Shown here: positions 14,946 through 36,633 of the stretch, piece by piece | Numbering within the stretch: position 1 is the stretch's first letter | Layout: every line of letters begins with the position of its first letter | Origin: Terriglobia bacterium | Lineage (GTDB): Bacteria; Acidobacteriota; Terriglobia; Acidiferrales; UBA7541 | Length of the DNA: 64,000 nt | Direction: 5' to 3' | Assembly: GCA_023512135.1 (NCBI GenBank) | Contig: JAIMAG010000001.1 | Coordinates: 248,001-312,000 of the forward strand | Translations under genes and position numbers: made by a program | Notes under the pieces: model-generated | Told to the model about the DNA's origin: nothing | Databases searched by the model: none | What the model saw: the letters and a program-made list of their open reading frames with translations, nothing else

Positions 14946-17888
14946 TCAAAGCAGGGGTTCGCCGGTGTGGGGGGCCAGGGAGGTGCGCGTCTGGTCGCGC
15001 AGGCGGATGATTTCGCGCCAGTGTTCGCGCGGGTCGGCGCTCGGTTCCGGAAAAATCGGCGGCAGGATGGTTATGGTAACGGCTCCGGGCCGGGGAAGGA
15101 TCGTCTCGTCGCGAAGGATTGCGCGCACGCCGCGCAGCGCCACGGGGAGGACAGGCCTTCCGGTAGCCACCGCGGCTTTGAACGCACCCAGTTGAAACGG
15201 TCGTACACCGTCGTGCGGCGTGAAGGTCCCTTCGGGAAAGACCAGCACGGAGTCACCTGCGCGCAGAGAGCGTTCGACTTCTTCTGCTTGGCGCAGACGC
15301 TGCTGACGGTCGCTGCGGTCGAACGCAAAATCGCCCCGGCGACGCAGGAAGTCGCCGATCAGCGGCATCGAAGCTACCTCGATTTTCGAGACAAAGCGGA
15401 ATTCCACGGGCAGGGCGGCCATCAAGACCAAAACATCGAAGTAGCTGGTGTGATTGGCCACCAGCACCGAATTCGGATGTCGCTGCAGGTGTTCGAACCC
15501 ATGCAGGCGGATGGGAATCCCGACCAGCCGAAAATACAGGCGGGAGAGGCGCGAAGTGAACAGCACCACGGCGCGGCGCGTCGGCAGCAGTCGCATGACC
15601 GCCCAGGTGGGCAGCAGCCAGAGGACGAACATCAGCAGGGCATAGATGCCGTAGAGGCGCACGAGCGCCTGCCGGGCAGCGCGCAGGAATGCGCGCGCGG
15701 CGCCGCTCAGCGTCAGCCGGGCCACCTGCCACCAGACCGGCGGGCGGGCGGCCTCCAGCCGGCCGCTCAGGTAGAGCTGCTTGGTTTCGCTGCGACGGAG
15801 TTTCCCGCTGGAGGTTTTGGGAATGGTCTGCGGCGGCAACAACTCGATATGGTCCGGCGGCAGGCCAAGGGCTTCGGCAACGCGATGGCTGATGCGGGCG
15901 GCCAGTTGCGCACGCTGGTGCAGGTATTCCGGGCGAACCTCGGCGGCGATGACCAACCGCTCGGTGCCCGAGCGTTCGTCCGGGATGCCGAAGGCGACGA
16001 CACAGCCCGGACGCACGCCGGCCACTTCGCCGACCAGTTCCTCGATTTCCTGCGGCGTGATGTTTCGTCCGGCCTTGATGATCACGTCTTTGGCGCGGCC
16101 GGTGATGAAAATTTCGTCGCCGACGCGGTAGGCGCGGTCGCCCGAATCCAGCCAGCCGTCTTCCCGGACCATTTCCAGCGTGGCCGAGAGGTTGCGGAAA
16201 TATCCCTGGGTGGCCGAGGGTCCGCGGAACCAGAGCCGCCCTTCGATTCGCTCCGGGAGCTCCTGGCCGCGGTCATCCACGATGCGGACTTCGTGCCGCG
16301 GAATCGGGCGGCCGCAACTGACTAGGGTCAGCACGCGGGCGGTGCTGGACGGAGCAGCGGGAACGGCGCGGCCGGTGCGCTGGAACGTCTCGCGCTCGAT
16401 GTGGTCCAGCACCGGCGGGCGCCCCAGCGGGGGAATGGTGACCGCGAGCGTCGCTTCGGCCAGGCCGTAGACCGGCAGATGCATCTCGTGTCGCCAGCCG
16501 TAGGGAGCGAAACGCTCGGTGAAGCGTTGCAGGGTTCCCGGATGAACAGGTTCGGCACCGTTCAGTGCCGCGCGCACGTGGCGGAGATCGAGCCCGGCCA
16601 GTTCGCGCTCGTCCAGCTTGCGCGCGCAGAGCTCGAAGGCGAAGTTCGGCGCCGCGGTCAATGTGCCGCGGTGATGGTGCAGTGCCCACAGCCAGCGTGC
16701 AGGTCGGGTCAGGAAAGCCAGCGGCGACATCACCACCGTGGGAATGCCGGCATAGAGCGGGAGCAGCCAGGTGCCGATCAGCCCCATGTCGTGGTAGAGC
16801 GGCAACCAACTGACGCCGACATCGTCGGGTTGGAGCCCTACCGCTTCGCAGATGGCGCGGATGTTCGCCAGCAGATTGGCATGGGTGAGCATGACTCCTT
16901 TGGGATGGCCGGTCGAACCCGAGGTGTATTGCAGGAACGCCAGGTCTTCCCCGCGCACCGCGCGCACCGGTGCGACTGCGGTGGCGTCTGCCGTTTGAGC
17001 GGTGAGCTGGTTTGCGGTGAGCACCGCTTCGAGCGAGGGCACGTGCGGTTTCAGCAGGTGAGCCAGGCGGGCGGCACGGGCAAAGGTGATGAGCCAGCGA
17101 ACTTCGGCGTTCCGCAGGATGGCCGCCTGCCGCGCGGCGTATTCCTCGATGCGGTCGGCGCGGAAAGGAGGATAGATGGGCACCGGAATGCCGCCCGCCA
17201 GCATCACGCCCAGGAAGCAGAAGAAAAAGTCGGCGCTGGTGGGCAGCATGAGCGCCACGCGGTCCGCTGCCCGCAACCGGCGCTGCTGCAAGGACAGGGC
17301 AACGGCAGCAGCCCGCGCGAGCAATTCGCCATTCGAAATTACGCGCGCGGCATGGCTGGAGGCCTCCGGCCCGCCCTCTTCATACAGGTAAAGGTGCGGT
17401 GCCGCAGCGGTGGCGGGCTGTGTGCCCCGGTGCCAGAGCACTTCGAGCAGGGTTTCCGCCTGCTCAGGGGGACGAAGCGTGCGAATGCCGCGTGCGGGGA
17501 GCACTGGCCAGGGTAGCGCACGGGCCGGCGGAGCCAGCTCCGCAGCGGCTTCTGTGCCGGCCTGCTCCGCTGCAGTTTCCGCCGCTTCGGTACGCCCATT
17601 CACCTGCGCCAGCACCGTGGCGACAATGTCCCCGACCGTCTCTGCCTCCGCCAAGGTGCGTTCCGGCAGCTGCGTCTGGAAGGCCTGGCCAAGTCGAAGC
17701 AGGAGCTCGACGCGCTCCAGGCTGCCCAGCCCGAGGTCGCGTTCCAGATGCAGTTCGGCGACGGGCGTACCCGGCTGCGCCAGCGTTTCCGCGGTCGGGC
17801 TGCCCAGCTCTTCCAGCAGCGCGCGCAGCGTGGCACGAACCTCGGCCTCGACGGCACCGGGCTCGAACCGGATTGCAGGAGTCGCCAC
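14946..17888 (-). CDS. fusion: acyl carrier domain + fatty-acyl-AMP ligase + PlsC-type acyltransferase
   Basis: I place the start at the GTG at 17888, nine bases after AAAGGGAGG; the open frame upstream to 18083 has no ribosome site. Three domains follow: a phosphopantetheine carrier (about 1-85, attachment Ser56 in LGLGSLERVELL); an adenylating ligase (about 130-700) with the P-loop 'YTSGSTGHPKGVMLTH', the 'VSWLPLYHDMGLIG' block typical of fatty-acyl-AMP ligases, 'GRAKDVIIKAGRNI' and the catalytic Lys in KTSSGKLRR; then a membrane segment and a glycerolipid acyltransferase with NHTSYFD (HX4D) and FPEGTF (about 820-940). The protein could activate a free fatty acid, load it on its own carrier and pass it to a lysophospholipid: a rearranged analogue of Aas. 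That chain of events is inference; the domains are clear. Confidence 0.88.
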   Translation of the reverse strand: MATPAIRFEPGAVEAEVRATLRALLEELGSPTAETLAQPGTPVAELHLERDLGLGSLERVELLLRLGQAFQTQLPERTLAEAETVGDIVATVLAQVNGRTEAAETAAEQAGTEAAAELAPPARALPWPVLPARGIRTLRPPEQAETLLEVLWHRGTQPATAAAPHLYLYEEGGPEASSHAARVISNGELLARAAAVALSLQQRRLRAADRVALMLPTSADFFFCFLGVMLAGGIPVPIYPPFRADRIEEYAARQAAILRNAEVRWLITFARAARLAHLLKPHVPSLEAVLTANQLTAQTADATAVAPVRAVRGEDLAFLQYTSGSTGHPKGVMLTHANLLANIRAICEAVGLQPDDVGVSWLPLYHDMGLIGTWLLPLYAGIPTVVMSPLAFLTRPARWLWALHHHRGTLTAAPNFAFELCARKLDERELAGLDLRHVRAALNGAEPVHPGTLQRFTERFAPYGWRHEMHLPVYGLAEATLAVTIPPLGRPPVLDHIERETFQRTGRAVPAAPSSTARVLTLVSCGRPIPRHEVRIVDDRGQELPERIEGRLWFRGPSATQGYFRNLSATLEMVREDGWLDSGDRAYRVGDEIFITGRAKDVIIKAGRNITPQEIEELVGEVAGVRPGCVVAFGIPDERSGTERLVIAAEVRPEYLHQRAQLAARISHRVAEALGLPPDHIELLPPQTIPKTSSGKLRRSETKQLYLSGRLEAARPPVWWQVARLTLSGAARAFLRAARQALVRLYGIYALLMFVLWLLPTWAVMRLLPTRRAVVLFTSRLSRLYFRLVGIPIRLHGFEHLQRHPNSVLVANHTSYFDVLVLMAALPVEFRFVSKIEVASMPLIGDFLRRRGDFAFDRSDRQQRLRQAEEVERSLRAGDSVLVFPEGTFTPHDGVRPFQLGAFKAAVATGRPVLPVALRGVRAILRDETILPRPGAVTITILPPIFPEPSADPREHWREIIRLRDQTRTSLAPHTGEPLL

Positions 17889-18130
17889 CGCCCGTCCTCC
17901 CTTTGAGCGAATCGGCCGCGTGAGGGCGCTGCCTGGGTCTTCGAAAGGCTCGTGCGTGTCGTTCCGGACAAATCTCCGTTGCCCGGGTCGGTAGAAGCGT
18001 ACCATGGCCGAAAAAGTCGGAAAAGGAAAACCGGACCGGCGAACGGGCTGATGCCGGTGCTGCCCGGTGGCGGCTTGCGGCAATCCTGTTATAGTGTCCG
18101 CGGCACCGGTATCACCGCACAGAGCGAACG

Positions 18131-20755
18131 ATGACCGACGAAAAAGCCAAGCGGCTGTTCCTGATCGACGCGATGGGCTACATCTTTCGCGCCTATCACG
18201 CTCCCATGGAGCGGTTGCGCAGCCCCTCGGGGATGCCCACCAAGGTGCCCTACGTGTTCGCGAACATGCTGCGCCGGCTGTTGCGCGAGCAGGCTCCGGA
18301 CTACATCGGTGTGGTGATGGACGTTGCAGCCCCGACCTTCCGGGACCAGCTCTACGAGGCTTACAAGGCCCAGCGGCCGGAGATGCCCGAGGACCTGGCG
18401 CAGCAACTGCCGTATGTGCGGCGTTTGTGCGAAGCGATGCGGCTCCCGATTCTGGAGTACGCCGGCTACGAGGCTGACGACGTCATCGGTACCCTCGCGC
18501 GGCAAGCGGCTCAGCAGGGACTGGAAGTGGTCATCGTCACCAGCGACAAGGATATGCTGCAACTGGTGCGCTCCGGTACGGCCAGCGGTGCGGGTGCGGT
18601 GCGCGTGCTGATCCCGACAAAAAACGACCTGCTCGTGGATGAGCGGAAGGTGGAGGAGTTGCTGGGTGTCCCGCCGGAGAAAGTCGCCGACGTGATGGCG
18701 CTGATGGGCGATGCGATCGACAACATCCCCGGGGCGAAGGGCATTGGCGAAAAGGGTGCGCGGGAACTGATCCGCCGCTTCGGGTCCGCCGAAGCCGCCC
18801 TGGAACATGCTGCGGAAGTCGAAAACAGGCGGTATCGCCAGGCGCTGGAGAACAGTCGGGAAGCGGTGCTGTTGTCGAAGCGGCTGGCGCAGATTGCCAC
18901 CGACATCCCGGTGCCACTGGAGCTCGAGAAGCTGCGCCGGCAGCCGCCCGACCTGGAAGCGTTGCGTGCGCTCTATGCGGAGCTCGGGTTTGCGTCGCTG
19001 CTGCGCGAGCTGGTGGCTCCTGCTGCGTCGAACGTCCAGGAGAGTCAATACCGGCAAATCCGTTCGGCCGCTGAGCTGGAGGCGTGCCTGAGCGCGATTC
19101 CGCCGGGACAGGAAGCGGCGCTCTGGCTCGCGCTCGACCTGCGCGAAGGAGAAGAGGGTGGGTTTGGCAGCCGTTTGGCTGCCGTGGAAATTGCCGTCGA
19201 GCCCGGGCGCGTGTGCACAGCCTGGCTGGACGAGCAGAGCGCCCTGCGCGATGCGTTGCGGCCGTGGCTGAACGATGCTGCCCGTCCGAAGGTGGTCCAC
19301 GACCCGAAACTGGCGGAGCTGCTGCTGGGGCCGGTCGAGGGCATCCGGCACGCCACGATGCTCTACTCCTACCTGCTCCGGCCGACCACGGCCCAGCACG
19401 GCCTGAGCGATGTGGTCCTGCGGCAGTTCAACACGGCTCTGAGCGGTGCGCCCGGCGAACATGCGGACTATCTGTTGCGGCTGGCCCCGCTGTTGCGCGC
19501 CGAAGTCGAAGCCCGCGGGCTGCTGGCCGTCTACGAGAAAATTGATCTGCCGCTGGCGCCGGTGCTCGCCCGCATGGAGCGTGCCGGTGTGCGCGTCGAT
19601 CCGGAGGCGCTCGGCCAGCTCGCTGTGCGCATGGAAGAAGAGCTGGTGCGGCTGGAGCGAAAGGTCTTCGAGCTCGCCGGACAGGAATTCAACATCAATT
19701 CGCCGCAGCAGCTGGCGGAAATCCTCTACGACAAGCTGAACCTGCCCGTACCGCGCCGCACGCGTACCCGCGGTCGCTCCACCGCCGCCGATGTGCTCGA
19801 AGAGCTGGCCGCGAAGCATCCGCTGCCGCGCGCCGTTCTGGAATACCGGGAAGTAGCGAAGCTGAAGTCCACCTATGTGGACGCACTGCCGCGGCTGATC
19901 CATCCGGAAACCGGCCGGCTGCACACACGGTTTTCCCAGACGGGCACCGCCACGGGCCGGCTCAGTTCGTCCAACCCCAACCTGCAGAACATTCCGGTGC
20001 GCACTGAACTGGGACGCGAGATCCGCGCCGCGTTCGCTGCCGAGCCGGGCTGGTTGCTGCTTTCGGCGGATTATTCGCAGATCGAGCTGCGGTTGCTGGC
20101 GCACTTCTCGCAGGATCCCGTGCTGCTGGAAGCCTTCCGGAAAGGCGAGGACATCCACGCGCGCACGGCGGCCGAGGTGTTCGGCGTGCCCCCGGCCCTG
20201 CAGACCCCCGAGCATCGGCGCATCGCCAAGGTCATCAACTTCGGCATCCTCTACGGCGTCTCGGCCTTCGGCCTGGCCCAGCAACTGGGCATTGAACCCG
20301 GCGAGGCCCGGCAGTTTATCGCTGCATATTTCGAGCGCTACCCGGGCGTGAAGCGCTGGCTGGATGCCCAGCTGGACGAGGTGCGCCGCACGCAGCAGAC
20401 CCGCACTCTGTTCGGACGCATCCGGCCGATTCCGGAAATCCTGGCCCAGCAGAATGCGCTGCGCGGCTTTGCCGAGCGCACGGCGCTGAACACGCCGCTG
20501 CAGGGTACCGCTGCCGACCTCATCAAACTGGCCATGATCGACATTGACCGCCGGCTGCAACAGGAGCGTTTCCGCGCGCGCATGATTCTGCAGGTGCACG
20601 ACGAGCTGTTGTTCGAAGTGCCCGAAACGGAGCTGGACCGGCTCCGGGCCATGGTGCGTCCTGCCATGGAGAACGTGGAAACGTTTGCCGGGCCGCTGAC
20701 CGTACCTCTGGTGGTGGACCTGAAGGCCGGACGGAACTGGCGCGACCTAGAATGA
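18131..20755 (+). CDS. polA: DNA polymerase I
   Basis: Domains in order: 5'-nuclease (about 1-300; 'YEADDVIGTLA', 'SDKDMLQLV', 'GDAIDNIPGAKGIGEKGA'), a 3'-5' exonuclease-like fold (310-490) and the polymerase (500-874) with motif A 'SADYSQIELRLLAHF' (about 643-657), the O-helix 'RRIAKVINFGILYG' (about 696-709) and motif C 'QVHDELLFEV' (about 819-828). It fills gaps and removes primers in repair and replication. Length is normal. The exonuclease domain has lost key metal ligands: motif I reads LDLREG instead of D-x-E, and the Asp of motif II is Ala (HATML where FDTML is usual), so proofreading is probably absent, as in several other bacterial Pol I enzymes. It is divergent from the fusion gene upstream (start to start about 240 bases). 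Confidence 0.95.
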   Translation: MTDEKAKRLFLIDAMGYIFRAYHAPMERLRSPSGMPTKVPYVFANMLRRLLREQAPDYIGVVMDVAAPTFRDQLYEAYKAQRPEMPEDLAQQLPYVRRLCEAMRLPILEYAGYEADDVIGTLARQAAQQGLEVVIVTSDKDMLQLVRSGTASGAGAVRVLIPTKNDLLVDERKVEELLGVPPEKVADVMALMGDAIDNIPGAKGIGEKGARELIRRFGSAEAALEHAAEVENRRYRQALENSREAVLLSKRLAQIATDIPVPLELEKLRRQPPDLEALRALYAELGFASLLRELVAPAASNVQESQYRQIRSAAELEACLSAIPPGQEAALWLALDLREGEEGGFGSRLAAVEIAVEPGRVCTAWLDEQSALRDALRPWLNDAARPKVVHDPKLAELLLGPVEGIRHATMLYSYLLRPTTAQHGLSDVVLRQFNTALSGAPGEHADYLLRLAPLLRAEVEARGLLAVYEKIDLPLAPVLARMERAGVRVDPEALGQLAVRMEEELVRLERKVFELAGQEFNINSPQQLAEILYDKLNLPVPRRTRTRGRSTAADVLEELAAKHPLPRAVLEYREVAKLKSTYVDALPRLIHPETGRLHTRFSQTGTATGRLSSSNPNLQNIPVRTELGREIRAAFAAEPGWLLLSADYSQIELRLLAHFSQDPVLLEAFRKGEDIHARTAAEVFGVPPALQTPEHRRIAKVINFGILYGVSAFGLAQQLGIEPGEARQFIAAYFERYPGVKRWLDAQLDEVRRTQQTRTLFGRIRPIPEILAQQNALRGFAERTALNTPLQGTAADLIKLAMIDIDRRLQQERFRARMILQVHDELLFEVPETELDRLRAMVRPAMENVETFAGPLTVPLVVDLKAGRNWRDLE

Positions 20756-22252: not shown

Positions 22253-23395
22253 CTAGCGGAGCCACGCGGCTAATCCGCCGAACTCGCGCAACTTTCTGGC
22301 CGCCTCGCCGGCGATGACTTCTACGTGCACATTGTAGCGGCGCGCCAGTTCCGGCAGTACAGCCCGCAGCGGCACCAGCCGGCGTTCGCCGCCACAGGCA
22401 GGGCAGATGCGATCGGCGGAACGGTCTACCCAGAGGCAGTTCTGGCACTGACGGAGTCGCCCGCCGAGTCCGCGCACCACCACCAGCTCGCGTGCCATAC
22501 CTTCCTGGATGCGGCGGAGGGTTTCGTCGGGGCCGACGACGGCGCGGGTCCCGTTGGGATTGGCGAGCAGCCGTTCCACCATCTGCTGCTCGCGATCCCG
22601 CTTCCAGGCCTTGATTTCCTGTTCCAGGCGCACGGCCAGGTCCGCCGGGGCGAGGTGAGACAGGTCAGCCCGAATCAGCAGGCAGCGCTCCTGAAAATTT
22701 CCGGGCAGTTCGTTCCAGACGGAGTCCACCGCGCCCTGCGGGCCGGCCACGACCACCGGGATCAGTTTTTCTTCGTTGGCCCACTGCTGGATCCGGTTGG
22801 CCGTTTCCTTGTAGAACTTTTCCAGCTGCGCTTCCACACGCTGCTCGAAGACGTCTCGCTGGGAGCCGCGCGTCTTCTGCACTCCGGGATGCGCGGGTGG
22901 GACCAGATATTTCTTCCGCCATTCGGCGAGGTCGAGCTGGAAGCGGAGTTTTTCCTGCTCTTCGGCGAAGCCCATCCAGAATTTGTAGAAGCGCGCTCCG
23001 CTGCGGTCCACCAGCGCCGCGCCGCACGGCTGGTGCTCATCGAGCAGCCAGAGCAGTTGGGTGAACGACGGCCGTCCCCAATGCAGCTCGTCCTCGACGT
23101 CGACCTGCAGAGGAATCACCTGCCAGGTCTCCGGTCCGGCAAAGACGACCAAGCCGCGCTCCCGCGGAGGCTGATTGCGCAGCAGCTCTTCGACACGACG
23201 CACCTGTTCCTGAAAGAGTTTTTGTTCGGCTTTGGGGATGCGACTGCGCAGCACCCGGGCACGCGATTTCAGCCAGATCAGCGCACCGGGCGGGTGTCCC
23301 TGATTCCGCGGGTTGGCCGGATTGGTATCCAGATACGCGGTCAGGATCGGCTGGGGCAACTGCGGAAGAGAATGAAGGAGTCTGGCATCGAGCAT
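22253..23395 (-). CDS. bacterial eRF1-like (baeRF / Vms1-like) protein
   Basis: The ATG at 23395 has GAGGAGAG upstream. The 380-residue protein has the overall layout of the bacterial archaeo-eukaryotic release factor family: an N-terminal domain ('AYLDTNPANPRN'), a central Rossmann-like eRF1 domain 2 with 'GAALVDRSGARFYKFWMG', 'IQQWANEEKLIPVVVAGPQGA' and 'LIRADLSHLAPADLAV', and an L7Ae-like C-terminal domain with a zinc ribbon formed by C-x2-C ... C-x2-C (CQNCLWVDRSADRICPACGG, about 316-335). Relatives such as Vms1/ANKZF1 cleave peptidyl-tRNA on stalled ribosomes. A catalytic residue equivalent to the Vms1 Gln or eRF1 GGQ cannot be assigned by eye. It is next to mtnA on the same strand, with no obvious link. 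Confidence 0.65.
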   Translation of the reverse strand: MLDARLLHSLPQLPQPILTAYLDTNPANPRNQGHPPGALIWLKSRARVLRSRIPKAEQKLFQEQVRRVEELLRNQPPRERGLVVFAGPETWQVIPLQVDVEDELHWGRPSFTQLLWLLDEHQPCGAALVDRSGARFYKFWMGFAEEQEKLRFQLDLAEWRKKYLVPPAHPGVQKTRGSQRDVFEQRVEAQLEKFYKETANRIQQWANEEKLIPVVVAGPQGAVDSVWNELPGNFQERCLLIRADLSHLAPADLAVRLEQEIKAWKRDREQQMVERLLANPNGTRAVVGPDETLRRIQEGMARELVVVRGLGGRLRQCQNCLWVDRSADRICPACGGERRLVPLRAVLPELARRYNVHVEVIAGEAARKLREFGGLAAWLR

Positions 23396-30589: not shown

Positions 30590-31393
30590 ATGCGCGAGTT
30601 CCGTGGTCAGTCGCTGAGCTGGCAGTTAACCGACGGCGTCTGCGAGCTGGCGCTGCATCGCGAGCCGGCGAATGAAATCGGCACGGCCTTGCTGGCCGAG
30701 CTGGAACAGTTTGTCGCTGCCCTGGATGCGCTGCAGAACGATGTGCGCGCGGTGATTCTCTACAGCCGGCTCCGCAGCGGCTTCAGCGCCGGCGCGGACC
30801 TGCGCGAGCTCTATCGGCGCATGCGGGGATTGACGGCTGAACAGCGGGTTGCCGGCGTGCGCCAGTTTCTCGAGCGCATCCACGCCGTGCTGAACCGCCT
30901 GGATGCCGCGCCGGCGACCACGATTGCGGCTGTGCACGGGGTCTGCTTCGGCGGCGGTCTGGAGCTGGCGCTGGCCTGCGATGTGATGGTGGCCGACAAG
31001 ATGGCACGCTTCTGTTTCCCGGAGCTGCGTCTGGGCATCCTTCCCGGTTTCGGGGGCATCCCGCGGCTGAAGCGGGACGTCGGCAATGCTGTGGTGCGCG
31101 ACCTGCTGCTCACCGGACGCAGCATCAACGCACAGCGTGCGCACGCCGTGGGGCTGGTTGCGCAACTGGCTGCCGAAGGCCAGGCGCTCGCGGTGGCGCG
31201 CGCCACCGCGCAGCAGGCCGCGAAATTTGATTCCGCCGCGCGGAGCAGGGCCAAACAGTTCAGCAAGCCGATTCCCTACGAAGAGCTGCAGCGCGAAATC
31301 GCGATTTTCTGCGAGCTGTTCGCCCGGCCCGCTGTCGAGGAAGGCCTCCGCAAGTTCGTGGAATCTTCTGCCCCGCTGCCCTATCTGCCGTGA
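30590..31393 (+). CDS. enoyl-CoA hydratase/isomerase family protein
   Basis: The 267-residue crotonase-fold protein has the oxyanion-hole segments 'GFSAGADLRELY' (about 64-75) and 'VHGVCFGGGLELALACDVMVA' (about 114-134), with Glu at the first catalytic position, and 'FPELRLGILPGFGGIPRLKRD' (about 142-162) carrying the second Glu. It should bind an acyl-CoA and catalyse hydration or isomerisation. A hydrophobic C-terminal helix closes the fold. It precedes an acyl carrier protein, ligase, lipid kinase and acyltransferase on the same strand, but 242 bases separate it from the next gene, so co-transcription is only possible. The exact acyl substrate cannot be told. Confidence 0.88.
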   Translation: MREFRGQSLSWQLTDGVCELALHREPANEIGTALLAELEQFVAALDALQNDVRAVILYSRLRSGFSAGADLRELYRRMRGLTAEQRVAGVRQFLERIHAVLNRLDAAPATTIAAVHGVCFGGGLELALACDVMVADKMARFCFPELRLGILPGFGGIPRLKRDVGNAVVRDLLLTGRSINAQRAHAVGLVAQLAAEGQALAVARATAQQAAKFDSAARSRAKQFSKPIPYEELQREIAIFCELFARPAVEEGLRKFVESSAPLPYLP

Positions 31394-31635
31394 GCCGCGA
31401 ATGCAACCAGGCGCAGCGTTGCCAGCAGGAACGGATGAAGGGCGCGGTGCAAGTTCGTTTTCGCTGCCGGAAGAGAAAGCTGCGGGGTACCGCGCTACCT
31501 GTCGTTGTGCCGATTCCGCCGGTTCGATTCTCCCCGGCGGGGTTGCCAGGGCAGCATGAGGTCGTGTATGAACAGAGGGAACGTTCCGAGAGGCAACCCC
31601 CCGAGGCGGTGCCGGAGGGTGCCTGCAACTGAGCG

Positions 31636-31878
31636 ATGCGCACTGTCGAACAAACCCTGGAAGAGATCCTGAACTTGGCGGCAGAACATTTTCGCGTGCC
31701 GCGCGGGCAGCTTTCTCCCGACGACGACTTTTTCAAAGCGCTCCGCCTGGACAGCCTGCAGGCGCTCGAGTTGCTCACCCGCCTGGAGCAGCACTTCGGC
31801 GTGGAGTTGCCCGACTACGAATTCCAGGGCGTGACCGATTTTCGCACTCTGGCTGACCGCATCCAGGCCCGACTGTAG
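31636..31878 (+). CDS. acyl carrier protein
   Basis: The 80-residue four-helix carrier has the phosphopantetheine site DSL at residues 39-41 ('LRLDSLQALELLTRLEQHFGV'). The acidic stretch 'SPDDDFF' before the helix and the 'FRTLADRIQARL' end are typical. Because the carrier lies directly before an AMP-dependent ligase, and is distant from any fatty-acid-synthase genes, it probably serves that ligase rather than FabA-I synthesis. It has a weak upstream ribosome site (AACTGAGCG). Promoter position is unclear. Confidence 0.92.
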   Translation: MRTVEQTLEEILNLAAEHFRVPRGQLSPDDDFFKALRLDSLQALELLTRLEQHFGVELPDYEFQGVTDFRTLADRIQARL

Positions 31879-31983
31879 CCGTTTCGCCCCCTGAGGTTTC
31901 TGCCGGCGCGCAACCTTTGTATACTTTCTGCGTTTGTGTCATTCGCGGGCAGGTGTTCAGTTCCGCCCAGCGCGGTTGTGCGC

Positions 31984-33729
31984 ATGCTGGATTTGAGGCA
32001 ATACCAGTCGCTGCAGGAAGCGCTGCGGGATGCGCTGGAAACGTTCCGCAACCACGTCTGCCTGATTGAATCCGACCGGGGCCGTGAACGGCACCGGCTC
32101 ACCTACGGGCAGTTTCGGGAACAGGCACAGCCGCTGGCGCGGGCGTTGCAAGATGCCGGCTTGGGCGCCGAGCCCGATCCGACCGCTCCGGCGAACCGCG
32201 CTGCGATTCTCATGACGAACCAGTCGCGGTGGTTGCTGGCGGCCTATGCGATTCATTCCTCGGGCGGCGTGCTGGTGCCGCTCGACTACAAGCTGACCGG
32301 ACGCGAGCAGCTCGCGCTGCTGGCGCACAGCCAGGCCCGCTATCTGATCACCGAATGGTTCCTCTGGCAGCAGATCACCCGAAGCGAAGGGTTTGCTGAT
32401 TTCCGTCCACGGTGCGTGGTGGTGACCGATGCGCCGGCCGACGCGGAGCTGTGCGGCGCAGTGCGCTGGGAAGAGTTCGTGGCACGGGGCGCCGGCCGGG
32501 AGCCGGTGTTCCGGCCGCGTCGGCGGTCAGACTGGGCCTGCATTGTGTATTCCTCCGGAACCGGTGGCCGGCCCAAAGGCTGCGTGCTCACCCACGACAA
32601 CTACCTGGAACAGTGCTGGTCGCTGACGCGCTGGTACCCGTTCTGGCCCGGTGTGCGCTACCTTTCGATTCTGCCGACCAACCATGCCATTGACTTCATG
32701 GTCGGATATATCGGTCCGTTTGTCTGCGGCGCGGCGGTGGTGCATCTGCGCACGCTGCGGCCGGAGTTTGTCCGCGAAGCGTTCGTGACCTACCGAATCA
32801 CCTACGTCAGTTTGGTGCCGATGGTGCTGAAAAATCTGGAGCGAGGACTCCGCCAGCGGCTGCAGGAGCTGTCGCCGCTGCAGCGACGGCTGTTTGCAGG
32901 ACTGGTCGGTTTGAACCGTGCGCTGACGCGCGACCGCCCGCGGCCGTGGCTCAGCCGGCGACTGCTTCCCTCTATCCATCGCGCTTTCGGCGGCGAGCTG
33001 CGGGCCATCATCGTGGGAGGCGCGTTCAGCGATCCGCAGACGCTGCAGTTTTTCTACGACCTGGGCATCCCGGTGGCCAATGGCTACGGTCTGACCGAAG
33101 CCTGCACGGCGGTGACTGTGAACAATCTAAAGCCCTTCCGGGCCGATACGGTGGGGCAGCCGCTGCCCGGCGTCGAGGTGCGCATTGTCGATCCCGATGC
33201 CGACGGCATCGGCGAAGTGGCGGTGCGCGGACGGAATGTGATGTCGCATTACCTGAATGACCCGGAGCTCACCGCGGAAACCATCCGCGACGGCTGGCTC
33301 TACACCGGCGATCTGGGGCGGCTGGACCCGGATGGCCATCTGCGGCTGTTCGGGCGCAAGAAAAACATGATCGTCACTGCCGGCGGGAAAAACATCTACC
33401 CCGAGGATGTAGAAGCGTTTTTCGAGGGGTTGCCTGTGAAAGAGTTCTGCATCTTTGCCGCAAACTACATCTGGCCGGCGCGCACGCTGGGGGACGAACA
33501 GCTCGTGCTCGTGGTGCGGCCGGAGCCGGAGCCAGAGCAAACCGGCCGCGAAGCGCTGCACCGCGAGCTGGCGGCGCGCAACCGCCGCCTGCTGGATTAC
33601 AAACGCGTTCACGGCTACCTGGTCTGGACGCATGATTTCCCGCGCACGGTTTCGATGAAAATCAAACGCGACGTCCTGGCCGCGGAAATTCGTGCGGCCG
33701 TGGAGCGTTCCGCCGTGGTGCCGTTATGA
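31984..33729 (+). CDS. AMP-dependent acyl-CoA/acyl-ACP synthetase (long-chain ligase type)
   Basis: I use the ATG at 31984, though a GTG at 31936 is possible; neither has a clear ribosome site, and TATACT at 31920-31925 could be a -10. Signatures: P-loop '[18 protein letters not shown]' (about 190-207), '[18 protein letters not shown]' (about 362-379), '[21 protein letters not shown]' and '[21 protein letters not shown]', and the catalytic lysine in VSMKIKRD near the C-terminus. An extra insertion '[18 protein letters not shown]' is present, as in long-chain ligases. It activates a carboxylic acid to the acyl-AMP and passes it to CoA or to the acyl carrier encoded just upstream. The stop overlaps the lipid kinase start by four bases (ATGA). 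Confidence 0.9.
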
Positions 33730-34685
33730 ACGCAGCAGCCGTGGGGCCCGCGGCCGGGCCGGTTTTCCCGGGTGCGCGCAGCGAGCGCCTGCTGGCGATT
33801 GTCAATCCCGCTGCGGGCGGTGGACGGTGCGGCCGGCAGGCGGCGCGAGCGATAGAGCAACTGCTGGCTGCCGGCGTGCCGCTCGACGTCGCCTATACCA
33901 CGGCGCCCGGCCATGCCTCGCAGCTCGCGCGCGAAGAATTCGCGCAGGGGCGGCGACGCTTCCTGGCCGTGGGTGGCGACGGCACCGCGTTTGAAATCCT
34001 GAACGGCGTGTTTCCGGAGGCCTGTTCCAGCCGGGTCACACTCGGGCTGCTCCCGCTGGGCACCGGCAACTCGTTCCTGCGCGATTTCCTGCCGGAACGC
34101 GCGGATGCCACCCGGCACGTGCTGGCCGCGATTGCTTCCGGGCGAACCCGTCCGTGCGATGTCATCCGTGCGGTGTATGCTTCCGGCGTGCTTTACTACA
34201 TCAATGTGCTGAGCCTGGGATTCGCAGCCGACGTCGCCGCACTGGTCAATCGCCGCTTCAAGTCCTTCGGGCGCCCCGGCTATCTGCTGGGAGTTCTGGT
34301 GGGTCTGCTGAGGCTGCGGCGGCGCGCGTTTCCGGTGCGCAGGGAGGGCGAAACAGAATTTGACCGGCGGCGTTGCCTGTTCCTAGCGTTCAGCAACAGC
34401 CGGTTCACCGGCGGGAACATGCTGATGGCCCCGCTGGCCGATGCGGCCGATGGAAAGCTGGAGTACGTCCGCTGGGGGCCCATCGGGCGGCTCCGGCTGC
34501 TGTGGAACTTGCCGCGGCTGTTCACCGGGACGCACATCTATCACCCGCAGGCAGAACGGAGCGAGACCCGGCAGGTCGAATTTCGTCTGGATGGGCCGGT
34601 GGACGTGACGGTGGACGGAGAATCGCTGCGATTGCAACTGGAGCGCCTGGAGGTCCTCCCCCGCGCGCTGGACGTGCTGGTCTGA
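33726..34685 (+). CDS. diacylglycerol/sphingosine-kinase-like lipid kinase
   Basis: The protein has the DAGK catalytic-domain marks: '[19 protein letters not shown]' (about 21-39), '[18 protein letters not shown]' with the GGDGT nucleotide site (about 79-96), and '[15 protein letters not shown]' (about 106-120). The C-terminal half is the beta-rich domain with '[21 protein letters not shown]'. Such enzymes (DgkB, YegS) phosphorylate a membrane diacylglycerol or related lipid on the cytosolic face. The ATG overlaps the stop of the AMP ligase, so they are translationally coupled. It is followed, 28 bases later, by a PlsC-type acyltransferase, which fits use of the phosphorylated lipid for glycerolipid assembly. 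Confidence 0.9.
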
Positions 34686-34713
34686 TGGAGAGGCCGGAGG
34701 AGGCAGCCTGACG

Positions 34714-35565
34714 ATGACCACGCCCGCCGCAGTGCGAACCCGAGCCGTGCCGCGAACCGACATTCGCGGCTGGAAGAAGGTGTGGTACGCCGCGCGGGCG
34801 CTGGTGCTGTGGACTGTGAGCATCCTCCATTTCGGCGTGCTGGCTTCGGTGCTGGTGCTGCTGGCGATCTTCGTCGATCCGCGGAAGAACGATCGTCCGC
34901 AGCGGTGGCTGTTTCGCAATGTCCTGCGGCTGGCGGGGGTGCGGTTCGAGGTGCGTCGCGCCCCCGGCTTCGATCCGCAACGCACCAGCCTGTTCGTGTG
35001 CAACCACGTGAATCTGTTCGACGCCTTTGTGGTGTATTCGGCGATTCCGCAGTTTGTGCGCGGGCTGGAGCTGGAGTCTCATTTCAAGATTCCGGCCTAC
35101 GGGTGGATGATGAAGCGATTCGGCAATATTCCGGTGCCGAAGCAGCCGACCGCCGCGGATCTGAAGCGGATGTATCAGCGCGTGCGGCGCGCGCTGGACG
35201 ACGGGATCAGCATCATTGTTTTCCCCGAAGGCGGGCGCACGCTGGACGGCCGCGTGGGGCCGTTTCGCGAAGGGGCGTTTCGCATGGCCCAGCAGTTCGG
35301 CTACCCGCTGGTGCCGATGAGCATCGTCGGTTCGTTTGAGTTCAACCGCAAGGGCGACTGGATTCTGTATCCTTCGAAAATCACGGTCTATTTGCACGAC
35401 ACGATCGAAACGCGGGGTCTGCGGAAGGAAGAGATTCCGGCGCTTGTCGAGCGCGTCCATGGGATCATCTCCGCGCCCGTCGAGGCCCATATGGGGCTGC
35501 GCCGGCAGCCAGCCCGACAGCGTTTCTGGTGGGAGCAGCCCGCAACGGCCCAGCCACAGGATTGA
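34714..35565 (+). CDS. 1-acylglycerol-3-phosphate O-acyltransferase family protein
   Basis: The start ATG is 11 bases after AGGAGG. A membrane segment (about 28-50, 'LVLWTVSILHFGVLASVLVLL') precedes the PlsC domain: 'FVCNHVNLFDAFVVYSAIPQF' with HX4D (about 90-110), 'RMMYQRV'-type helix, 'GISIIVFPEGGRTLDGRVGPF' with FPEG (about 166-186), and 'YPLVPMSIVGSFEF'. It transfers an acyl group from acyl-ACP or acyl-CoA to the sn-2 position of a lysophosphatidic acid-like acceptor. The upstream lipid kinase and ACP/ligase make one coherent unit. A second PlsC domain is fused to another ligase at 14946. Confidence 0.9.
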   Translation: MTTPAAVRTRAVPRTDIRGWKKVWYAARALVLWTVSILHFGVLASVLVLLAIFVDPRKNDRPQRWLFRNVLRLAGVRFEVRRAPGFDPQRTSLFVCNHVNLFDAFVVYSAIPQFVRGLELESHFKIPAYGWMMKRFGNIPVPKQPTAADLKRMYQRVRRALDDGISIIVFPEGGRTLDGRVGPFREGAFRMAQQFGYPLVPMSIVGSFEFNRKGDWILYPSKITVYLHDTIETRGLRKEEIPALVERVHGIISAPVEAHMGLRRQPARQRFWWEQPATAQPQD

Positions 35566-35690
35566 ATGCCTTCCAGTTCCGTCTGACGCAATCTGTCCAT
35601 CGAGCTGCGGCGCACGGTACCTTCCCTGGAGCGCGCCGACCGGCGGAGCCGGTTTTGCGGATTCCAGAGAGTCTGCGGCAGCCGTGGGCC

Positions 35691-35966
35691 TCAGAGCCCC
35701 AGGGCCTCGCGGATTTCTCGTTCGTATTCGGGGAAGTAGCGGGCGATGACCCTGAGGTCGAATGTGCCGAGGATTTGCTCTTTCGGCTCGCGGGCCAACA
35801 GGAATTCGAAGGAACGCCGCACCAGCTCTTCTTCGGAGACGCGGCCGGCGGTGAGTTTGTGGGCGTAGTCGGGTGCGACGCGCACGCGGTGCGTGGTGCG
35901 ACTGCCCGCCTCTTCGACCGTAACGAGGTACTCTCCGGGTGATTTCCTCTGAATGGCAATTTTCAT
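35691..35966 (-). CDS. small conserved-looking hypothetical protein
   Basis: The 91-residue product from the ATG at 35966 begins MKIAIQRKSPGEYLVTVEE and continues as a short beta-sheet followed by two helices ('KLTAGRVSEEELVRRSFEFLL', 'TFDLRVIARYFPEYEREIREA'). It has no signal peptide, no cysteines and a charged, well-behaved composition, so it is a genuine small cytosolic protein. I do not recognise a named family. It lies between the convergent PlsC gene and the CDP-alcohol phosphatidyltransferase, which begins upstream on the same strand. Confidence 0.7.
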   Translation of the reverse strand: MKIAIQRKSPGEYLVTVEEAGSRTTHRVRVAPDYAHKLTAGRVSEEELVRRSFEFLLAREPKEQILGTFDLRVIARYFPEYEREIREALGL

Positions 35967-36021
35967 AGCCGCACGTCCCGACTCAGCGAGCTGCACAGAA
36001 ATTCAGAGTTCGTTCTCGAAG

Positions 36022-36633
36022 CTACACAGAGGGTCGCGCAGTAGGCAGAACGCGTCCTGCCTTGGTTTCGCGCCAGGTGTAGTAGATGCGGTGGATGACC
36101 GTCAAGGTGGAAAGCACTGCAATCACCCACAGCACCGGCGCCATACGATCGAAGAGTCCGCCGAGAATCAGCAACACGAGCCGTTCGGGACGTTCCATGA
36201 AGCCGACCTTGCACGAGGGAATCAGCGACTCGGCGCGCGCGCGAGTGTAGCTGACCATCACGGAACCGGCCATGGCCACCGCGGCCAGAATCACGTAGAA
36301 GCCGCGGCCGATCCGCGTGTAGTGCACAACGAGACCGATGTACAGCGCCATGTCCGAGTAGCGGTCGAAGACGGAGTCGTAGAAGGCGCCGAAAGCCGTC
36401 ACGCGGCCCATGCGCCGGGCCACCTGCCCGTCGGCCATATCCAGAAAGCCGGCGAGGAAGATGAACAGGGCGGCCAGTTGGAATTCGCTGCTGGCGAAGA
36501 AGACCGCGGCGACGATGTTGCCCACCAGGCCGAGAAAGGTGAGCACATTCGGGTTGATACCGGTGGCACCGATGGCGTCCACAATTTTGTTCAGCAGCCA
36601 TCGGCCGCCCTGGCCAATTTTCTGTGTCAGCAT
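36022..36633 (-). CDS. CDP-alcohol phosphatidyltransferase
   Basis: About five to six membrane segments are visible. The family signature DG-x2-AR-x8-G-x3-D-x3-D is complete: 'DMADGQVARRMGRVTAFGAFY' followed by DSVFDRYSD (about 66-94). The enzyme joins a CDP-diacylglycerol to an alcohol (inositol phosphate, glycerol phosphate or similar) with release of CMP. The alcohol cannot be told from sequence; relatives with 'NPNVLTFLG' and the 'TGINPN' start resemble inositol-phosphate or archaetidyl-type members. It adds a head group to lipids made by the neighbouring kinase/acyltransferase cluster, though it is on the opposite strand. Residues 140-155 ('KVGFMERPERLVLLILGG') complete the conserved C-terminal half. 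Confidence 0.9.
   Translation of the reverse strand: MLTQKIGQGGRWLLNKIVDAIGATGINPNVLTFLGLVGNIVAAVFFASSEFQLAALFIFLAGFLDMADGQVARRMGRVTAFGAFYDSVFDRYSDMALYIGLVVHYTRIGRGFYVILAAVAMAGSVMVSYTRARAESLIPSCKVGFMERPERLVLLILGGLFDRMAPVLWVIAVLSTLTVIHRIYYTWRETKAGRVLPTARPSV

What the first reader, a model, noticed from the sequence alone, without database searches (positions are those of the whole stretch)
30590..36633. Compact glycerolipid cluster with its own carrier, ligase, kinase, acyltransferase and head-group transferase
ACP, AMP ligase, lipid kinase (ATGA overlap) and PlsC follow each other, preceded by a crotonase and faced by a CDP-alcohol transferase. It could make or remodel an unusual membrane lipid, with the separate fusion protein at 14946 as a second route.
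Basis: partly seen in the sequence, partly recalled or inferred. Interest (0 to 1): 0.55.

Follow-up and report, generated by a model that had tools for sequence, protein, structure and literature searches.

The report
Detached half of acidobacterial lipid operon
These five genes are one half of a conserved but apparently undescribed gene set of soil Acidobacteria that probably helps build unusual, possibly ether-linked, membrane lipids; the neighbouring head-group enzyme is ordinary housekeeping.

Summary
The cluster is real. Crotonase, ACP, AMP ligase, DAGK-type lipid kinase and PlsC (30590-35565 +) lie in the stated order; ligase and kinase share ATGA; a CDP-alcohol transferase converges. 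In relatives these genes are the 3' half of one operon: HAD-fused fatty acyl reductase, thioester reductase, GT-B/pyruvyl-transferase-like protein, second AMP ligase, then crotonase, ACP, ligase, kinase (PlsC only in some lineages). 46 of 52 testable named loci have the complete eight-gene run. In the window's genome the operon is split: the other half lies about 140 kb away. The halves nevertheless co-occur exactly: the same 9 of 297 genomes sampled across Acidobacteriota. The CDP-alcohol transferase is not specific (55 of 61 genomes), nor is the 14946 fusion (found in 13 genomes without the operon). Best reading: an unfused analogue of the elb ether-lipid operon, with the same kinds of parts as four-domain ElbD in separate genes. 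A tetraether-synthase-like radical SAM gene lies near it in 6 of 80 named loci. Against strict membership: ElbD fusion absent, LarA-like gene absent, HAD nucleophile lost, and the ligase is not the closest ElbD relative in the genome. Product untested.

The parts
30590..31393 (+). crotonase-family enoyl hydratase, both catalytic Glu positions kept
   Evidence: Pfam ECH_1 1.4e-43; GGG[FL]ELAL in 26 of 27 and FPELRLG in 27 of 27 orthologues (meaning of these Glu positions recalled)
31636..31878 (+). stand-alone acyl carrier protein
   Evidence: Pfam PP-binding 1.1e-14; DSLQ site in the window copy; next to the ligase in 26 of 26 relatives' loci
31936..33729 (+). AMP-forming acyl ligase (LIG); likely start 31984
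   Evidence: Pfam AMP-binding 2.4e-65; P-loop YSSGTGG[RQ]PK and KIKR each in 25 of 27; orthologues 60% identical or more in 34 of 60 relatives
33726..34685 (+). DAGK/YegS-type lipid kinase (DGK), ATGA overlap with ligase
   Evidence: Pfam DAGK_cat 2e-24 and YegS_C 2.7e-23; GGDGT in 23 of 27
34714..35565 (+). PlsC-type acyltransferase
   Evidence: Pfam Acyltransferase 9.8e-21; HX4D in 25 of 25; not detected after the kinase in many Terriglobales loci
35691..35996 (-). small ORF, no family; probably not part of the unit
   Evidence: no Pfam or NCBIfam match; no match in 26 relatives' loci
36022..36633 (-). CDP-alcohol phosphotransferase, phosphatidylinositol-phosphate-synthase-like; housekeeping neighbour
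   Evidence: Pfam 9.7e-19; NF040950 167.5 bits against cut-off 180; present in 55 of 61 genomes
14946..18083 (-). separate ACP-FAAL-PlsC fusion (FUS); not tied to the operon
   Evidence: Pfam and NCBIfam; 39 of 61 genomes (own included) have a long match, 13 of them without the operon

Best explanation
The window holds module 2 (enoyl hydratase, ACP, acyl ligase, lipid kinase, PlsC) of a two-module acidobacterial lipid operon; module 1 (degenerate HAD fused to an alcohol-forming fatty acyl reductase, a thioester reductase, a GT-B-fold PS_pyruv_trans-like protein, a second acyl ligase) lies elsewhere in this genome. SHOWN: the modules form one operon in most relatives and practically always occur together. 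INFERRED: the ligases charge the ACP with fatty acid; the two reductases bring the acyl thioester to aldehyde or alcohol level; the GT-B protein or a reductase helps join the chain to a glycerol backbone by an ether bond; the kinase phosphorylates the resulting alkyl(acyl)glycerol so that, with PlsC, it enters the CDP-diacylglycerol pathway. It would thus be an unfused functional analogue of the elb (ElbD) ether-lipid operon, probably supplying ether-linked and perhaps membrane-spanning lipids in Acidobacteriota that lack ElbD. The ether-forming step itself is a guess.
For: Operon: 46 of 52 named loci with enough sequence have all eight genes in order and strand (of the other six, two lack only the thioester-reductase hit, one contig ends, two have module 2 inverted nearby, one has no module 2 within 10 kb). 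Co-occurrence: the same 9 of 297 phylum-wide genomes, five families, none discordant; of 61 genomes 35 have both, 2 only module 1 (G041, a 59% complete MAG, and G001, 90% complete, whose contig ends), 0 only module 2. Unlinked in G000, on different contigs in G190 and G120, still together. elb analogy: FAR, ACS, ACP and PlsC are the parts of ElbD; acidobacterial ElbD-type proteins of 1433-1475 aa have FAR-ACS-ACP-PlsC and usually lie beside a HAD gene; ElbD is needed for alkyl ether lipid in Myxococcus (PMC9131029, passages read). Other clusters in the phylum combine HAD, FAR, SDR and kinase. A Tes-like radical SAM gene (PDB 7tol E 3.8e-62) lies 0.3-6.6 kb upstream in 6 of 80 named loci, about 0.3 expected.
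Against: No ElbD fusion and no LarA-like gene in the core. HAD motif I is WR[VA]EGS in 79 of 80 (one masked), so the nucleophile is lost, while elb-type HADs keep FYDL[DE]GT. In the window's genome a 941-aa ACS-ACP-PlsC fusion elsewhere is closer to the ElbD ligase domain (median 303 bits) than this ligase (227 bits), and the ligase tree does not join LIG with ElbD (long branches). The FAR tree (quick method) gives sister clades, not nesting. The thioester reductase is not an ElbE-type epimerase. The enoyl hydratase has no clear role. The Tes-like gene is nearly phylum-wide (74 of 80 chosen genomes), so co-occurrence with it says nothing. I found no lipid data for carriers; the named loci are nearly all from MAGs.
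Confidence: 0.5

Rival explanations
1. Same operon, but the product is not an ether glycerolipid: fatty alcohol or aldehyde is made and attached elsewhere (wax-like ester, alkyl glycolipid, or a pyruvylated or glycosylated lipid through the GT-B protein).
For: FAR plus thioester reductase plus GT-B-fold transferase (best PDB matches are UDP-GlcNAc 2-epimerases and O-GlcNAc transferases, query TM-score 0.36-0.52) fit this equally well; an enoyl hydratase has no place in a simple ether scheme.
Against: The lipid kinase, and PlsC in some lineages, point to a glycerophospholipid; WS/DGAT was not found in 61 genomes (but its control was silent, so inconclusive).
Confidence: 0.3
2. Ordinary salvage or remodelling: ligase and ACP recycle fatty acids, kinase and PlsC return diacylglycerol and lysolipid to the phospholipid pool.
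For: The five window genes alone would suffice for this.
Against: Strict co-occurrence with a fatty acyl reductase module and patchy occurrence (9 of 297) do not fit general salvage.
Confidence: 0.12
3. Sphingolipid-type cluster as in Caulobacter (ACP, acyl-ACP synthetase, ceramide kinase; recalled, not tested here).
For: ACP, ligase and DAGK-like kinase also occur in that cluster (recalled).
Against: No aminotransferase-type (serine palmitoyltransferase) protein among the eight core genes by Pfam.
Confidence: 0.03

Closest known systems
elb operon / ElbD of Myxococcus xanthus (review PMC9131029, passages read) and its acidobacterial form
   Same: Fatty acyl reductase with Sterile C-terminus, acyl-AMP ligase, ACP, PlsC and a HAD domain in one gene set; FAR domains about 33% identical to acidobacterial ElbD-type proteins.
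   Different: Parts on separate proteins; HAD fused to FAR and degenerate; no LarA-like gene; extra thioester reductase, PS_pyruv_trans-like protein, second ligase, crotonase and lipid kinase; ligase not the closest ElbD relative in the genome.
HAD-LarA-FAR-SDR-kinase clusters of other Acidobacteriota (G040, G153, G189, G245)
   Same: HAD, FAR, SDR and DAGK-type kinase together; one (G153) has the Tes-like gene next to it.
   Different: Separate HAD with intact motif I, LarA homologue (NF052592 814 bits against cut-off 740 for the G040 one), no ACP/ligase pair recognised in the cluster.
Carboxylic acid reductase (A-PCP-R)
   Same: The second ligase and the thioester reductase match its A and R parts in NCBIfam.
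   Different: Domains on separate proteins; all matches far below the curated cut-off.
Tetraether synthase Tes and bacterial homologues (PMC8941075, passages read)
   Same: Tes-like gene near the operon in some loci.
   Different: Not part of the operon in most loci, unlinked in the window's genome (G000:C11), and below the NCBIfam cut-off (322 against 450).

Membership tests
elb (ElbD) ether-lipid operon | One protein with FAR, ACS, ACP and AGPAT domains | tested here: not met
   The four parts are on separate proteins; true ElbD-type proteins exist in other Acidobacteriota
elb (ElbD) ether-lipid operon | HAD-family protein (ElbB) | tested here: inconclusive
   HAD domain present but fused and without nucleophile: WR[VA]EGS in 79 of 80
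elb (ElbD) ether-lipid operon | NAD-epimerase-type SDR (ElbE) | tested here: inconclusive
   An SDR is present but is of thioester-reductase type, TIGR01746 153.8 bits against cut-off 213.35, unlike the Epimerase-type SDR of elb-like loci
elb (ElbD) ether-lipid operon | LarA-like gene between HAD and ElbD (seen in the acidobacterial elb-like loci; identity with Myxococcus ElbC not checked) | tested here: not met
   Absent from the eight-gene core
elb (ElbD) ether-lipid operon | Required for alkyl ether lipids | not testable with these tools
   Needs lipid analysis
Phosphatidylinositol-phosphate synthase (36022-36633) | CDP-alcohol phosphotransferase signature (recalled pattern) | tested here: met
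   D..DG..AR.{8}G.{3}D.{3}D in 20 of 20 orthologues
Phosphatidylinositol-phosphate synthase (36022-36633) | NCBIfam equivalog cut-off | tested here: not met
   NF040950 167.5 against 180; NF045883 123.7 against 170
Sphingolipid biosynthesis cluster | Serine palmitoyltransferase gene (recalled) | tested here: not met
   No such Pfam match among the core genes; rest of the genome not searched
Ger/PlsA reductive ether route | DUF2229 domain protein in the genome (domain make-up recalled) | tested here: not met
   None in G000; 27 of 61 genomes have one, 17 of the 35 operon carriers

The most novel reading that the evidence does not exclude
The two modules are a third, independent enzymatic route to ether-linked glycerolipids in Bacteria, beside ElbD and Ger/PlsA, in which stand-alone ligases, an ACP, two reductases and a GT-B-fold protein make the ether bond on an unphosphorylated glycerolipid that the kinase then returns to the phospholipid pool; with the Tes-like enzyme it would be the missing ether half of brGDGT synthesis in uncultured soil Acidobacteriota.
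Probability: 0.22. Interest if true: 0.85.

Novelty: new variant of a known kind. Interest (0 to 1): 0.58.

Why it matters
How and by whom branched tetraether and other ether lipids are made in soils is an open problem for paleoclimate proxies; a 2025 paper (PMC11868695, passages read) says that only some subdivision 4 Acidobacteria hold the elb genes or agps homologues and that the pathway in the phylum is unclear. A conserved, strictly co-occurring gene set in Terriglobia and other acidobacterial classes gives named genes that can be deleted or expressed to test this. It also shows that the lipid cluster seen in the window is only half of the system.

Tried and rejected
Sphingolipid reading: dropped, no SPT-like gene in the core. 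CDP-alcohol transferase as dedicated head-group enzyme: rejected. Fusion at 14946 as the pathway's second route: not supported. Inositol-phosphate synthase as a link: found in 56 of 61 genomes, so uninformative. LIG as direct orthologue of the ElbD ligase domain: not supported; two non-ligase rows (L216_par3970, L218_par3330) were wrongly left in that tree and lie on length-10 branches, so only its broad groups were used. B12/radical SAM gene after module 1 in G000: no relative at 35% identity or more in the 80 named loci, so not part. Myxococcus ElbD itself could not be fetched; acidobacterial ElbD-type proteins served instead. Tes co-occurrence: uninformative. Wax-ester synthase search: silent control. 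The FAR tree is the quick version; the careful one was not finished. The gene caller used in scripts is home-made; starts in loci are approximate, it gave no usable genes for L204 and L210, and several motif tallies have misses from truncated models or strict patterns. The lists of ligase, HAD-FAR, DUF2229 and fusion carriers compared were copied by hand.

Papers: PMC9131029, PMC9426513, PMC10087280, PMC11868695, PMC13274423 and PMC8941075 were read as passages found by term only; Lorenzen 2014, Sinninghe Damste 2018 and Sahonero-Canavesi 2022 were not seen except as cited there. That the operon is not in print rests on paper searches, which cover only openly licensed papers.

Full report
OBSERVATION. 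The ligase start is probably 31984, by comparison with orthologues that begin MLDL. Crotonase, ACP, ligase and kinase keep order and strand in 26 of 26 relatives' loci, and PlsC in 25 of 26. Those 26 loci are part of the 34 relatives whose ligase is 60% identical or more; the others were not fetched. Outside flanks (UvrA, Hsp20, metalloprotease, RidA) are not conserved (0 of 26; PilZ 1 of 26), so the borders of the unit are clear.

THE MISSING HALF. Directly upstream of the crotonase, relatives carry four more co-oriented genes: a protein of about 770 aa with a HAD domain, NAD_binding_4 and Sterile domains (HAD-FAR); a stand-alone NAD_binding_4 protein of thioester-reductase type; a PS_pyruv_trans-like protein; and a second AMP ligase. 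By gene calls they are present in 24, 24, 26 and 25 of the 26 loci; some absences are ends of the fetched stretch. In the window's genome the same four genes lie from G000:C44:133987 to about 140700, on the same contig, about 140 kb from the window cluster. The one same-genus genome has flanking genes of the same sizes and strands upstream of its HAD-FAR gene, and its contig ends soon after, so the split is unlikely to be an assembly error of this genome alone.

GENERALITY. A scan of named genomes with the HAD-FAR alignment gave 355 relatives, of which the best 80 were kept; by their record titles 79 are acidobacterial and one is 'Bacterium HR10'. Of these 80 loci, 52 have at least 8.5 kb after HAD-FAR, and 46 of the 52 have the complete same-strand run of eight genes. 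PlsC and the CDP-alcohol transferase follow only in part of them. In many Terriglobales loci other ORFs follow the kinase; in the one checked (L090) these are an unknown protein, a VKOR protein and an esterase. PlsC is therefore a lineage-level member, not core.

CO-OCCURRENCE. In 297 genomes drawn from the phylum the window ligase (E up to 1e-120) is found in 9, and HAD-FAR in the same 9, from five families; if independent, the chance of identical sets is 2.3e-17, ignoring shared descent. In the 61 genomes of the relatives search (own included) 35 have both, 2 only HAD-FAR, none only the ligase. In three of the nine the halves are not adjacent (G000, G190, G120). In L118 and L145 module 2 is inverted near module 1, and in L120 the ACP-ligase-kinase part lies upstream of HAD-FAR on the other strand. 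The modules thus travel separately but are kept together, which argues for one pathway more strongly than synteny alone.

WHAT IS NOT PART OF IT. The CDP-alcohol transferase occurs in 55 of 61 genomes, 44 of 45 good-quality ones, and inositol-1-phosphate synthase in 56 of 61: a general phosphatidylinositol-phosphate-type head-group route. The 14946 fusion has a long match in 39 of 61 genomes, 13 of them without the operon, and 9 carriers lack it. The genome has two more ACS-ACP-PlsC fusions.

ACTIVE SITES. Ligase P-loop and terminal KIKR (25 of 27 each), kinase GGDGT (23 of 27), PlsC HX4D (25 of 25), crotonase Glu motifs (26 and 27 of 27), reductase YxxxK (24 of 24 in the thioester reductase, 14 of 24 HAD-FAR models, several of which are truncated) look intact. 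The HAD part of HAD-FAR does not: motif I is WR[VA]EGS in 79 of 80 named proteins, one masked, against FYDLDGT in separate HADs of most other FAR clusters and FYDLEGT beside ElbD-type proteins. It is probably a non-catalytic domain. The PS_pyruv_trans-like protein is predicted with confidence (pLDDT 88.2); the best PDB matches are GT-B-type proteins, UDP-GlcNAc 2-epimerases and O-GlcNAc transferases, with query TM-scores of 0.36-0.52, so the fold is GT-B-like but the function is open.

RELATION TO KNOWN ETHER-LIPID GENES. [quoted passage not shown] ElbD is needed for the alkyl ether lipid, but the ether-forming chemistry is unknown. In the phylum sample a FAR search found 24 genomes: seven with HAD-FAR, 14 with the FAR in one long open frame of about 1450-1525 aa, three with separate FARs; no genome had two kinds at that cut-off. 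Of nine fetched neighbourhoods of the long ones, seven gave a called protein of 1433-1475 aa (L204 and L210 gave no usable gene calls); the two scanned by Pfam are FAR-ACS-ACP-PlsC. In six of those seven the locus has HAD, LarA-like and SDR genes, or some of them; in L208 none was found. HAD-FAR, separate FAR and the main ElbD-FAR group form three sister clades, with the L208 ElbD-FAR outside them on a long branch (quick tree). So the window-type operon uses the same kinds of parts but is neither an elb operon by definition nor derived from it in a way the data show. The thioester reductase is not an ElbE-type SDR, and the ligase is further from the ElbD ligase domain than another protein of the same genome.

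LINK TO MEMBRANE-SPANNING LIPIDS. In six of 80 named loci a radical SAM gene lies 0.3 to 6.6 kb upstream of HAD-FAR, where about 0.3 would be expected; the six are probably related by descent, so they are not six independent events. Its best solved relative is the archaeal tetraether synthase (7tol, E 3.8e-62); its NCBIfam match is Tes at 322 bits, under the cut-off of 450. It also lies near HAD-FAR in G058 (L047) and G190, and beside a HAD-LarA-FAR-SDR-kinase cluster in G153. The same gene is in 74 of 80 chosen genomes, including ones without the operon, and is on another contig in the window's genome, so only its position is informative. Bacterial Tes homologues have been proposed, not proven, to make brGDGTs (PMC8941075 passages).

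MECHANISM. Shown: one conserved two-module gene set. Inferred from families: ligases load the ACP; reductases bring the acyl group to aldehyde or alcohol level; the kinase phosphorylates a glycerolipid; PlsC acylates where present. Guessed: that the chain ends in an ether bond, and that the GT-B protein or a reductase makes it. The enoyl hydratase has no clear role in this scheme. The kinase suggests that the decisive step happens on an unphosphorylated glycerolipid. No DUF2229-type (Ger/PlsA-like) protein was found in the window's genome.

VERDICT. The cluster is real and strongly conserved, but it is half of a larger system; the head-group enzyme and the fusion protein should be taken out of the story. 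The ether-lipid reading has about even odds; a different fatty-alcohol-based lipid is the main rival.

Noticed in passing
G000:C11:31904-33835 and 73 of the other 79 genomes: A Tes-like radical SAM protein is nearly phylum-wide in the Acidobacteriota genomes tested, including ones without the operon.
   Followed up: partly
L205:7199-15297, L209:5164-13361, L215:102-9545: ElbD-type proteins of other Acidobacteriota sit with HAD, an SDR and a LarA-like (nickel-pincer racemase/isomerase family) gene.
   Followed up: partly
L157:6802-17009, L158:7601-15237: A third cluster form: FAR, ACP-FAAL-PlsC fusion related to the window's 14946 gene, PlsY, HAD and LarA-like, followed in L157 by an SDR and a DAGK-type kinase.
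   Followed up: partly
window 18089-20599 (-) and 18131-20755 (+): Two long overlapping ORFs on opposite strands; the minus-strand one has no Pfam match and the plus-strand one was not scanned; which is real was not settled.
   Followed up: no
L155:12907-14502 (+): In the window's genome a B12/radical SAM-type protein follows the detached first half of the operon; it has no relative in the 80 named operon loci.
   Followed up: partly
window 22253-23395 (-): A baeRF family 10 (archaeo-eukaryotic release-factor-like) protein.
   Followed up: no
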